This document shows, piece by piece, positions 59,713 through 62,915 of a stretch of 64,000 nt of DNA (position 1 is the first letter of the stretch; each line of letters begins with the position of its first letter). The notes under the pieces are model-generated. The model was given only the letters and a program-made list of their open reading frames with translations, ran no database searches and was not told the DNA's origin. Both the position numbers and the translations under genes were made by a program. The stretch is from Terriglobia bacterium (GTDB lineage: Bacteria; Acidobacteriota; Terriglobia; JAIQFV01): positions 186,001 through 250,000 of the forward strand of contig JAIQFV010000008.1 of NCBI GenBank assembly GCA_020073085.1, written 5' to 3'.

Positions 59713-59885
59713 CTCAAGGATGTACCTCTCCCAGATTTTTCTGAACCAGCGCCCGGGGAGTAGGGACCAGGAAATGGCCAGGATCCTGGATCCTGGACCC
59801 GAGGGGGCGGTGGCTTGGGCCGGATGTCAACCGTCCGGGATATATTTGATTTGCTTTCTTTCGACATAGACTGGACTTGTTCAAG

Positions 59886-61220
59886 ATGAAGATCCTTGTG
59901 ATTGGAAGTGGCGGACGGGAGCACGCGCTGGTTTGGAAGCTGGCTCAATCAAAGAGAGTCAACAAAATCCTCTGCGCCCCGGGAAATGCAGGAATCGCCG
60001 GAGAACCCAAGGCGCAGTGCCTGGCCCTGGACGCCGGTGGGGATCTTGTCGCCGTCCGTCAATTCGTGCTGAGGGAAGCAATCGACCTGGTTGTGGTGGG
60101 CCCCGAAGTGCCCCTTGCAGGAGGGATTGTCGACCTGTTTGACGGGACTCATGTAAAGATCATCGGCCCGCATCGTCAAGCCGCCCGGCTCGAATCCTCA
60201 AAGATTTTTGCCAAGCAGTTCATGTCGAGCCATGGCATTCCCACGGCTGACTATTTCGTGTGCGACAGCGCCGACCAAGCCCTGGATTTTGTCAAGAGAT
60301 GCAGTTATGGCTATCCGGTGGTCATCAAAGCGGACGGATTGGCGGCGGGAAAGGGAGTGGTGCTGGCAAAGGACTTTTCCCAAGCCGAGGCCACCATCCT
60401 CGAGTTTATGACGGAGAAGGTGTTTGGAGAGGCGGGTTCTCGTATTGTGGTTGAAGAATGTCTGCGAGGCCGGGAGTGCTCGTTCATGGTGTTTAGCGAT
60501 GGGGAGCACTACCAGCCGATGGTTCCCTCCCAGGACCACAAGCGCGTGTACGACAACGATGCCGGGCCGAACACCGGGGGCATGGGCGCCTTTAGTGACG
60601 ATGCCCTGCTCACGACAGAGATGAGGATGACAATCCTTCAGTCCATCGTCGAGCCTGCGCTTCGCGGCATGAGATCGGAGGGAACCCCTTTTCGCGGCAT
60701 TCTCTATTGCGGTCTGATGCTGACCGACCAGGGACCCAGGACTTTGGAGTTCAATTGCCGTTTTGGAGATCCCGAAACTCAACCTGTCCTGATGCGGATG
60801 AAGACGGATCTGCTCGACGTCTTTGAAGCCCTGCTTGAAAACCGCCTCCATCAAGTCTCGCTCCAGTGGGCGACCGATTCCGCTGTCTGCGTGGTGCTGG
60901 CCAGCGGCGGGTATCCCGGCAAGTTTGAAAAGGGGAAGCCCATTTCGGGACTGGCTGAAGTCAGCCGGATGGAGGACGTGAAGGTGTTTCACGCGGGCAC
61001 CCAGGCCGCCACCCTCTCCCATCAAACGGAAAGAGCGGGCCCGATCCAAACCGTGGGGGGTCGCGTGTTGGGAGTGACCGCCCTGGGACGGGACTTGCCC
61101 GTGGCGGCCGCCCGCGCTTATGAAGCCTGCTCAAGAATTCATTTCGAAGGGATGCATTACCGTCGCGACATCGGCGGGCGCCCGGCCACGCGAAACTCCG
61201 GACCCGTTGAGACGGCCTGA
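59886..61220 (+). CDS. purD: Phosphoribosylamine-glycine ligase
   Basis: A 444-residue GAR synthetase that joins phosphoribosylamine and glycine using ATP. It begins MKILVIGSGGREHALVWKLA, followed by VVVGPEVPLAGGIVD. The ATP-grasp domain shows GYPVVIKADGLAAGKGVVLA, VEECLRGRECSFMVFSDGEH, GPNTGGMGAF and LEFNCRFGDPETQPVL. The C-terminal AIRC-like part ends with GGRVLGVTALG and FEGMHYRRDIG. The ATG at 59886 is preferred over TTG 59877. ThyX follows 120 bp later on the same strand. Confidence 0.96.
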   Translation: MKILVIGSGGREHALVWKLAQSKRVNKILCAPGNAGIAGEPKAQCLALDAGGDLVAVRQFVLREAIDLVVVGPEVPLAGGIVDLFDGTHVKIIGPHRQAARLESSKIFAKQFMSSHGIPTADYFVCDSADQALDFVKRCSYGYPVVIKADGLAAGKGVVLAKDFSQAEATILEFMTEKVFGEAGSRIVVEECLRGRECSFMVFSDGEHYQPMVPSQDHKRVYDNDAGPNTGGMGAFSDDALLTTEMRMTILQSIVEPALRGMRSEGTPFRGILYCGLMLTDQGPRTLEFNCRFGDPETQPVLMRMKTDLLDVFEALLENRLHQVSLQWATDSAVCVVLASGGYPGKFEKGKPISGLAEVSRMEDVKVFHAGTQAATLSHQTERAGPIQTVGGRVLGVTALGRDLPVAAARAYEACSRIHFEGMHYRRDIGGRPATRNSGPVETA

Positions 61221-61340: not shown

Positions 61341-62915
61341 ATGGAAGTTTTTACAGACAAACCCAAGGTGACGCTGAGAAATTACTTCCAGCGCCCGCTC
61401 GACTCCAGTGTGGCGGCGGCCCGCACGTGCTACTCCCCTCGCGTGATCGGAGCCGAGGAGATCAGCGAAGAGCAACGCACCAACATCTCCCAGCTCACCT
61501 TCGATGCGGGTCACCACACCGTCTATCAGCATCCGCATTTCGAGTTCGGGCTGGAGAATATCTCGCGGCAATTTGTGTGGAATTTCCTTCACAGCTACCC
61601 CTTTTACAACTCCGAGCAGTCTTCTCAACGCTTCGTGCGGCTGGATGAAATCCGCGCCTTTGTGCCGCCCCTGGACGAGTCAAACCGGCAGATCTATTAC
61701 CAGGCCGTCGCCCAAGCTTGGAACGCCTATCGCGAGTTGACTGCAATCCTTAGGAAGGACACCTTTGAGATTCTTGGCGAGGTTTTCAAGCTTCACGACA
61801 CCTCCAGCGACAAGAAGAAGAAGAAGGTAAAGCGGGAGTCCGAGAAAAAGGCCATCGAGGTGGCCCGCTATGTCATTCCCATCGCCGCCTTCACCTCCAT
61901 GGTGCACACCATTTCAGGGATTACCCTGCACCGGCTCAAACGCTTGATGCATTCCGGAGACACGCCGTTTGAAACCACCCAGATTATCAGTGAAATGGTG
62001 GAGTGCGTGAGGCAGGTGGACCCCGATTTTTTCGAAAAGATTGGCGATCCGCCGATTGACGCGCAGCAAATCCCCGAATTCAATTTCCGCTCCCTCAACC
62101 TGCCGGCCGGACCGATGGGGTTTGCCCGTACCCCCGTTGCCGTGGAAACGGCGATGAAGGAATTCGATGCGGATCTGGGCGAGAGAATTTCAAAACTGGT
62201 GGATCATACCCTCGATGCGGAGAAGACCGTGGCCAATGCCCTTCGATACGCCATGGGGATCTCCCGGCGCGAGATGAATGACGCCATGGCCATCGATGCC
62301 ATGCTCAACCCCGCCAAGAACCGGTACCGGCTGGACAAGCTGAACCTCACCTTCCAGGTCCCCCTGATGAAACCCCTGAACCACGCCGCATACACCTTCA
62401 TCAAGAAAATCTCGCATACCGCCGACTCCCAAGACCAGCGCCACCGCATGGTCCCGGCGTCGCGCCCGATGATGATGTTCACCGATACCCGTTCGTCGGA
62501 TTACCTCACCCCTCGTCTCATCGCCGCCAATCCCGAGGCGCGGGCGGTGTTCGAGCAGACGATGGAAATGCTGTGGTCCGCGAAAAACAAACTCCTCGAC
62601 AACGGGGTGCCCACCGAGTTCGCCATGTATCTGCTCCCCAATGCCAAGGCGCTCAGGTTCTCGGAGTCGGGATCGCTTCTCTATCTCCTCCACAAGTGGA
62701 CGATGCGCACTTGCTTCAATGCCCAGGATGAAATCTACGAAGCTTCGATGCAGGAGCTGGAGCAGGTCCGCAAGGTTCATCCGATGCTTGCCAAATACAT
62801 TGGCCCGCCCTGTGTGGTCCGGGTGGGCCAAATCCTCCCCATCTGCAGCGAAGGCGCCCATTTTTGCGGAGTCAAGGTCTGGGAAAAATTTCCGAACGTC
62901 CAAAGACGATTGTGA
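61341..62915 (+). CDS. thyX: Double-length FAD-dependent thymidylate synthase-like protein
   Basis: A 524-residue protein about twice the length of usual ThyX (about 220-250). Both halves read as ThyX folds. The first (1-235) has SEQSSQRF at 91-98 and ARYVIPIAAFTSMVHTISG, but the R-H-R motif is missing, with HSYPFYN in its place. The second (265-524) has the motif QRHRMVPASRP (366-376) and the typical C-terminal part FAMYLLPNAKALRF with NAQDEIYEAS. The two halves may thus complement each other in one active site. ThyX makes dTMP from dUMP with methylene-tetrahydrofolate and FAD. An ATG at 61320 would add seven residues. Confidence 0.82.
   Translation: MEVFTDKPKVTLRNYFQRPLDSSVAAARTCYSPRVIGAEEISEEQRTNISQLTFDAGHHTVYQHPHFEFGLENISRQFVWNFLHSYPFYNSEQSSQRFVRLDEIRAFVPPLDESNRQIYYQAVAQAWNAYRELTAILRKDTFEILGEVFKLHDTSSDKKKKKVKRESEKKAIEVARYVIPIAAFTSMVHTISGITLHRLKRLMHSGDTPFETTQIISEMVECVRQVDPDFFEKIGDPPIDAQQIPEFNFRSLNLPAGPMGFARTPVAVETAMKEFDADLGERISKLVDHTLDAEKTVANALRYAMGISRREMNDAMAIDAMLNPAKNRYRLDKLNLTFQVPLMKPLNHAAYTFIKKISHTADSQDQRHRMVPASRPMMMFTDTRSSDYLTPRLIAANPEARAVFEQTMEMLWSAKNKLLDNGVPTEFAMYLLPNAKALRFSESGSLLYLLHKWTMRTCFNAQDEIYEASMQELEQVRKVHPMLAKYIGPPCVVRVGQILPICSEGAHFCGVKVWEKFPNVQRRL

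What the first reader, a model, noticed from the sequence alone, without database searches (positions are those of the whole stretch)
61341..62915. Tandem ThyX whose two halves carry complementary parts of the active site
The protein is about 524 residues with two ThyX-like halves. The first half keeps the EQSxxR-type strand (SEQSSQRF) but lacks the RHR motif; the second keeps RHRMVPAS. In known ThyX homotetramers each active site is built from several subunits, so a fused dimer with divided motifs would be a different way to build the enzyme, or a regulatory pseudo-half plus catalytic half.
Basis: partly seen in the sequence, partly recalled or inferred. Interest (0 to 1): 0.55.

Follow-up and report, generated by a model that had tools for sequence, protein, structure and literature searches.

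The report
Fused ThyX with divided active site
A bacterium appears to make its DNA letter T with one double-length enzyme whose two halves have each kept a different, matching part of the catalytic pocket, an arrangement also found in its relatives and in several phages and plasmids.

Summary
ORF 61341-62915 encodes two ThyX (Pfam Thy1) domains in one 524-aa chain. It is the only thymidylate synthase gene found in a 98.7%-complete genome with no ThyA or DHFR_1 match. Half 1 keeps dUMP-side residues (GHHT, ISR, QxSxR, R176) and lacks RHR; half 2 keeps RHR and R456 and lacks the dUMP-side set. Against the published three-subunit ThyX site, residues of the RHR subunit (A) sit in half 2, and most of those from the other two (B, C) in half 1. 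SxR in half 1 with RHR in half 2 held in 80 of 80 close chains (window included), in 51 of 51 chains of four groups of the phylum, and in 18 of 18 other copies read (Thermomicrobium; Bacillus and Paenibacillus plasmids; phages such as Ma-LMM01). Of 297 phylum genomes, none of 155 with two or more Thy1 matches has a full-length ThyA. The tree favours, with modest support, one old duplication. Most likely it is a working ThyX: two chains form a pseudo-tetramer with two complete and two dead sites. That is inferred. I found no paper describing the division, but much literature was not searchable. New variant of a known kind.

The parts
61341..62915 (+). Tandem ThyX gene, 524 aa (start ATG 61341; alternatives ATG 61320, TTG 61239)
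61374..62024 (+). Half 1, Thy1 match 2-190 of 191; supplies the B- and C-type active-site residues
   Evidence: G000:C8:247374-248024
61509..61520 (+). GHHT, residues 57-60: H58 and T60 = Tm H53 and T55 / Mtb H69 and S71, subunit-B type
   Evidence: 80/80; subunit
61566..61568 (+). R76 = Mtb R87, dUMP, subunit-C type
   Evidence: 80/80
61611..61634 (+). SEQSSQRF, residues 91-98: Q93, S95, Q96, R97, F98 = Mtb Q103, S105, Q106, R107, Y108; subunit-C type (subunit of Q106 not stated in what I read). The RHR position upstream is S85-Y86-P87
61866..61868 (+). R176 = Mtb R172 (dUMP phosphate; its subunit was not stated in what I read)
   Evidence: 80/80; role
62193..62783 (+). Half 2, Thy1 match 1-190 of 191; supplies the A-type residues
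   Evidence: G000:C8:248193-248783
62430..62447 (+). QDQRHR, residues 364-369: Q364 = Tm Q75; R367-H368-R369 = RHR, subunit-A type (FAD)
   Evidence: 80/80; subunit
62706..62708 (+). R456 = Mtb R199 / Tm R174, subunit-A type (dUMP)
   Evidence: 80/80; subunit
62811..62867 (+). C-terminal Cys/His cluster C491, C502, H507, C509; possible metal site, function unknown
   Evidence: each 80/80; similar cluster in Thermomicrobium roseum by eye

Best explanation
This is a flavin-dependent thymidylate synthase in which an old duplication and fusion turned the homotetramer into a dimer of two-domain chains, with the active site shared out between the halves. Half 2 takes the place of subunit A: RHR for FAD, R456 for dUMP. 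Half 1 takes the places of subunits B and C: GHHT on the flavin and folate side, and R76, S95, Q96, R97 and R176 for dUMP. In a pseudo-222 tetramer of two chains, each half 2 can meet one half 1 across one two-fold axis and the other half 1 across a second axis. That gives two complete sites. The other two sites would need RHR from half 1 and dUMP residues from half 2, so they would be dead. Shown: the two domains, which residues are kept and lost, their conservation, no ThyA or DHFR_1 match in this genome, and a confident single-chain model. Inferred: activity, the dimer of chains, and which sites are live.
For: Subunit origin from the literature: Mtb ThyX site 1 takes RHR 95-97 and R199 from subunit A, S71 and R190 from B, and Q103, R87, S105, R107, Y108 from C (PMC6514825 section 9); H53 is on 'monomer-3' (PMC11940539 passages). 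dUMP phosphate is bound by R87, Q106, R172 and R107 (PMC9571937 passages; subunits of Q106 and R172 not stated there). In 80 of 80 group-A chains half 1 keeps H58, T60, R76, Q93, S95, Q96, R97, R176 and half 2 keeps Q364, RHR, R456; half 2 has none of the GHxS pair, R87, S105, Q106 or R172, and R107 in 1 of 80. In 51 tandem chains of four groups, half 1 versus half 2: S/T55 51 vs 0, H53 46 vs 0, R87 37 vs 0, S88 51 vs 2, R90 51 vs 2, R147 51 vs 0; R78 1 vs 51. SxR first and RHR second in 14 of 14 further copies and 4 of 4. Function: no ThyA and no DHFR_1 match in this genome. Of 297 phylum genomes (search limited to 90% completeness or more), 155 have two or more Thy1 matches and none of these a full-length ThyA; 70 have full-length ThyA without Thy1; 1 (G293) has both. 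Full-chain AlphaFold2 model pLDDT 87.0, pTM 0.86; half 2 aligns to Mtb ThyX 3gwc with Z 14.4, half 1 to ThyX-like PolB 4p5a with Z 12.2.
Against: No activity, FAD or dUMP binding, or oligomer state was tested. The partition is not clean for every residue. Over 51 chains the R174 equivalent is also in 26 half-1s, R80 in 13 and H79 in 24; Y/F91 is also in 26 half-2s; the other B residue, R165 (Mtb R190), is in only 17 half-1s and 13 half-2s, and by this alignment in neither half of the window, though two invariant Arg (R198, R201) lie nearby in half 1; H178 is in 9 and 5. In the 80-chain set the R199 position of half 1 is still R in 11. Group C half 1 has D at H53; groups B and C lack R87. Half 1 here has F98 where the usual Tyr sits (9 of 80 have F). 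Half 1 folded alone is low confidence (pLDDT 64.1, 41 sequences). No coordinates were available, so distances between the halves were not measured.
Confidence: 0.82

Rival explanations
1. Half 2 is the catalytic domain and half 1 is a regulatory or scaffolding pseudo-ThyX that supplies no catalytic residues.
For: Half 1 has lost RHR, the best-known ThyX motif. Pseudo-enzyme halves are common in duplicated proteins (general knowledge).
Against: Half 2 itself lacks the dUMP-phosphate residues (R87, Q106, R172 equivalents in 80 of 80; R107 in 79 of 80) and the GHxS pair (80 of 80). Half 1 keeps all of these in 80 of 80, which a mere scaffold need not do.
Confidence: 0.07
2. The complete site is formed inside one chain by half 1 plus half 2, so the monomer (a pseudo-dimer) is the active form and no second chain is needed.
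For: A and C residues are in different halves of one chain; the full-chain model has pTM 0.86, which implies a defined packing of the halves.
Against: Solved ThyX sites also take B-type residues from a third subunit; in the tandem the B-type GHHT is in half 1, which would then have to serve both B and C from one copy.
Confidence: 0.12
3. The protein is not the thymidylate synthase but a ThyX-like enzyme with another substrate, such as a UMP methylase like PolB.
For: The only listed ThyX-family row that falls on half 1 is PolB, a UMP/dUMP methylase; the protein is far from solved ThyX in sequence.
Against: It is the only Thy1 gene, with no ThyA match, in a 98.7%-complete genome, and full-length ThyA does not occur in any of 155 genomes with two or more Thy1 matches.
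Confidence: 0.04

Closest known systems
Homotetrameric ThyX (M. tuberculosis 3gwc, T. maritima TM0449, H. pylori 3n3y)
   Same: Same fold in both halves, same family profile, and the main catalytic motifs present once per chain.
   Different: Those have one domain with RHR and ExSxR in every subunit and four identical sites. Here the two motifs sit in different halves of a fused chain.
Other tandem ThyX annotated simply as thymidylate synthase: Ma-LMM01 gp020, Tunturiibacter phage Tunturi_5 gp50, Thermomicrobium roseum WP_012643046, Bacillus licheniformis WP_087635014
   Same: Two halves with SxR in the first and RHR in the second.
   Different: Distant in sequence (27.0% for Ma-LMM01 against a group B chain; 38.5% for T. 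roseum against the window). The Bacillus/Paenibacillus type reads RHNR in half 2. The record annotations name no tandem or division.
PolB, UMP/dUMP methylase of Streptomyces cacaoi (4p5a)
   Same: The only listed ThyX-family row aligned to half 1 (Z 12.2).
   Different: Single chain of 225 residues; different substrate range according to its title.
Chlamydia trachomatis ThyX (recalled, not tested here)
   Same: I recall it as about 530 aa and active in vitro; its use in an inhibitor study was seen in passages (PMC3498832). It may be tandem too.

Membership tests
ThyX / flavin-dependent thymidylate synthase (PF02511, TIGR02170) | Profile match above the curated cut-off | tested here: met
   Thy1 176.6 bits vs 24.8, two stretches; TIGR02170 91.6 vs 87.9
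ThyX / flavin-dependent thymidylate synthase (PF02511, TIGR02170) | ThyX fold | tested here: met
   Half 2 Z 14.4 to 3gwc_B, rmsd 1.9, 199 aligned; half 1 Z 12.2 to 4p5a_D, rmsd 2.9, 187 aligned
ThyX / flavin-dependent thymidylate synthase (PF02511, TIGR02170) | RHR and ExSxR together in one domain (the ThyX motif; recalled as the family's hallmark) | tested here: not met
   Neither half has both; the chain as a whole has both. So this is filed as a divided variant, not an ordinary ThyX
ThyX / flavin-dependent thymidylate synthase (PF02511, TIGR02170) | Genomic role as sole thymidylate synthase | tested here: met
   One Thy1 gene, no ThyA match, no DHFR_1 match; near-exclusion across the phylum
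ThyX / flavin-dependent thymidylate synthase (PF02511, TIGR02170) | Tetramer with active sites at three-subunit interfaces | not testable with these tools
   Only single chains could be predicted and no coordinates were given
ThyX / flavin-dependent thymidylate synthase (PF02511, TIGR02170) | FAD-dependent conversion of dUMP to dTMP | not testable with these tools
   Needs protein or complementation

The most novel reading that the evidence does not exclude
An obligate half-of-sites enzyme built by one ancient fusion: the tandem ThyX of bacteria and phages descend from a single duplicated chain in which the three-subunit active site was divided by subunit of origin. The two dead sites were kept because they changed job, for example as structural or allosteric pockets; a K or R at the FAD-contacting S/T55 position of half 2, in all 51 chains of the four groups of the phylum, would mark this.
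Probability: 0.3. Interest if true: 0.7.

Novelty: new variant of a known kind. Interest (0 to 1): 0.56.

Why it matters
Division of labour inside a fused oligomeric enzyme is usually argued case by case. Here one essential enzyme shows it across many families of a phylum and in several phages and plasmids, with single-domain ThyX in the same phylum for comparison. It makes a clean test possible: a catalytic mutation can be placed in one half only, so the three-subunit model of the ThyX site can be checked residue by residue. ThyX is also studied as a drug target, with four equal sites per tetramer in the solved enzymes.

Tried and rejected
A regulatory pseudo-half was considered and set low (see rivals). 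Assembly or frameshift artefact was rejected: a one-frame tandem gene occurs in 26 of 41 genomes searched, the window's own included; of the other 15, 9 have one single-domain gene, G038 has two on different contigs, G022 has its halves in two frames, and 4 have no match. Independent fusions in each group were considered. The trees put halves together by position, but support is modest (75 for all half-1s, 88 for all half-2s; quick method, long branches flagged). In the first tree single-domain rows fell on both sides, 6 with the half-1s and 4 with the half-2s. In the second, the Bacillus-type group and L141 sit at different places in the two halves. More than one origin is not excluded.

Led nowhere: viral contigs with the window protein, no relative, and with L141, none; half 1 folded alone, pLDDT 64.1, not searched further. 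No paper on tandem or divided ThyX was seen in the listings of searches; the library holds only openly licensed papers, so this is weak evidence of absence. PMC409905 (on the three-monomer active site; title seen in a reference list) is not held. PMC4913046 held none of the terms sought.

Limits of the counts. The genome-contig scan found 223 relatives and kept the best 80. I aligned 79 of these 80 with the window; L084 was left out because its frame was over-long, but it has both motifs in order. The 17 tandem loci come from 20 regions that I picked from the part's match list that was printed (best scores first), so families with weak Thy1 scores are under-sampled. No chain was dropped from the 51-chain set for lacking a motif. 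The ten single-domain ThyX of the table were picked by a pattern that requires RHR and SxRY, so their 10 of 10 for those positions is by construction; L131 and L132, which read KHR, were left out. Of 8 Bacillus and Paenibacillus plasmid records hit, 4 were read; L146 (98% identical to L142) was not. The first tree used 86 of 112 rows (16 of 29 group-A chains). The second used 95 rows: 12 group-A chains of the phylum plus T. roseum, 7 of the 12 Bacillus-type copies, and no L133. Genome tallies were typed by hand from the listings; genomes with two matches were not all checked for a single frame.

Full report
What is there. The + strand ORF ending at 62915 encodes 524 aa from ATG 61341. Pfam Thy1 matches twice, and the two matches are similar in strength (E 7.3e-26 and 2.1e-25). 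The NCBIfam thyX model is passed. A purD-type gene lies just upstream (59877-61220). The genome (5.79 Mb, 68 contigs, completeness 98.74) has no other Thy1 match, no ThyA match and no DHFR_1 match. Of the 80 best named relatives, all but 4 (L063, L069, L075, L098) carry titles that I read as Acidobacteriota taxa, so the window is very probably Acidobacteriota.

The division. A review gives the subunit of each active-site residue in M. tuberculosis ThyX (PMC6514825, section 9 read): RHR 95-97 and R199 from subunit A; S71 and R190 from B; Q103, R87, S105, R107 and Y108 from C. Passages of PMC11940539 put H53 on a third monomer. Passages of PMC9571937 name R87, Q106, R172 and R107 as binding the dUMP phosphate; they do not give the subunit of Q106 or R172. 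Passages of PMC3498832 describe the inhibitor pocket of PBCV-1 ThyX with Gln75 and Arg182 from monomer A and Ser88 and Gln89 from monomer B. Mapped by alignment, the window's half 1 has H58, T60, R76, Q93, S95, Q96, R97, F98 and R176, and S-Y-P in place of RHR. Half 2 has Q364, R367-H368-R369 and R456; it has L342 and K344 in place of GHxS, H359 for R87, and M377, M378, M379 and M429 for S105, Q106, R107 and R172. So A-type residues are in half 2, and B- and C-type residues in half 1, apart from R190, which by this alignment the window has in neither half.

How conserved. In 80 of 80 group-A chains the listed residues kept by each half are invariant, except F98 (Y in 71, F in 9). One chain of 80 has R at the R107 position of half 2, and 11 of 80 have R at the R199 position of half 1. 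The 26 one-frame tandem genes (aligned), 17 more (the other 3 of 20 loci are single-domain, two with an intein-like insert) and 8 make 51 chains in four groups: A (NSEQxSQR / QRHR), B (WDGQxxSxRYQ / HRHRR), C (EPIEKSTR / HRHRMM) and D (TEKSQRY / LKRHR). Half 1 versus half 2 over 51: H53 46 vs 0; S/T55 51 vs 0; R87 37 vs 0; R78 1 vs 51; H79 24 vs 51; R80 13 vs 51; S88 51 vs 2; R90 51 vs 2; Y/F91 51 vs 26; R147 51 vs 0; R165 17 vs 13; R174 26 vs 51; H178 9 vs 5. Of ten single-domain ThyX (picked by a pattern that already requires RHR and SxRY), all keep the other residues of this list except R87 and R165, each 6 of 10. R174, R165, H178, H79, R80 and Y/F91 are therefore not cleanly divided. The GHxS, SxR, R147 and R78 splits are.

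How widespread. T. roseum's large plasmid carries a group-A copy at 38.5% identity. Four Bacillus and Paenibacillus plasmids read, of 8 such records hit, and eight IMG/VR contigs carry a type with RHNR in half 2 (12 of 12). A faecal 'Bacteriophage sp.' contig, Tunturiibacter phage Tunturi_5, Microcystis phage Ma-LMM01 and two Vibrio phages carry others. In the 14 loci and the 4, SxR comes first and RHR (or RHNR) second in every one.

Function in the phylum. Of 297 genomes (search limited to 90% completeness or more), 212 have Thy1 matches (155 with two or more, 57 with one). A full-length ThyA match (E below 1e-90) occurs in 71, of which 70 lack Thy1 and one (G293) also has a single Thy1 match. 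No genome with two or more Thy1 matches has a full-length ThyA; 15 have neither. Weak, partial ThyA-like matches in 23 further genomes, 14 of them with Thy1, were not counted as ThyA.

Fold. The full-chain model has pLDDT 87.0 and pTM 0.86. Solved ThyX chains lead both PDB comparisons; the listed ThyX-family rows fall on half 2, except one, PolB, on half 1. Half 1 alone gave only pLDDT 64.1 with fewer sequences. This fits, but does not prove, that half 1 needs half 2 to fold. In the viral library the two top hits align over 487 and 547 columns (TM-score to the query 0.58 and 0.54); the second is the Ma-LMM01 enzyme.

Origin. With the motif columns removed, all half-1s lie on one side of a branch (support 75) and all half-2s on one side of another (88), with single-domain ThyX between. 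In the first tree the order of groups is the same in both halves: A, then D, then B with C; there 6 single-domain rows fell on the half-1 side and 4 on the half-2 side. In the second tree the Bacillus-type group and L141 do not sit alike in the two halves, with low support. This favours one duplication and fusion, but only modestly.

How it works, most likely. In a 222 tetramer each subunit has different neighbours that can supply B and C residues. If both are half 1, one live site needs one half 2 and two half-1s, and two chains give two such sites. The complementary sites would need residues that the halves have lost. This follows from the residue pattern and the published descriptions; no coordinates were available to measure it.

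Novelty. The family and fold are known, and the tandem genes whose annotation I saw are called thymidylate synthase or hypothetical protein. I found no paper stating that the halves divide the active site (searches listed under Tried and rejected). C. trachomatis ThyX, which I recall as double-length and active, could make the tandem form already studied. I rate it a new variant of a known kind.

Noticed in passing
window 62811-62867: C491, C502, H507 and C509 at the C-terminus are each invariant in 80 of 80 group-A chains; T. roseum has a similar cluster and the faecal contig L141 a related Cys motif. Possible metal site.
   Followed up: partly
L153 46-2772 (also L152): Tandem ThyX frames of about 900 aa in viral contigs; L153 carries a LAGLIDADG insert within half 1, probably an intein.
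   Followed up: partly
L131, L132: Single-domain ThyX interrupted between KHR and ExSGR by an intein-like insert; in L131 with an HNH domain.
   Followed up: partly
L037: Genome G015 has, besides the tandem gene, a second ThyX-like gene with THRMFSRNAASSRA in place of the usual motif.
   Followed up: no
window 62370-62372 (residue 344): Half 2 has K or R where canonical ThyX has S/T55, in all 51 chains of groups A-D and 80 of 80; T. roseum has Q there by eye.
   Followed up: partly
L024 about 1420-1440: In genome G022 the two halves lie in different frames, with the break seemingly in the poorly conserved linker; assembly error or real frameshift unknown.
   Followed up: no
window 61632-61634 (F98): Phe replaces the usual lid Tyr (Tm Y91) in the window and 8 others of 80 chains.
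   Followed up: no
G293; 15 genomes: One phylum genome has both a full-length ThyA and a single Thy1 match; 15 of 297 show neither (9 of these have a weak ThyA-like match).
   Followed up: no
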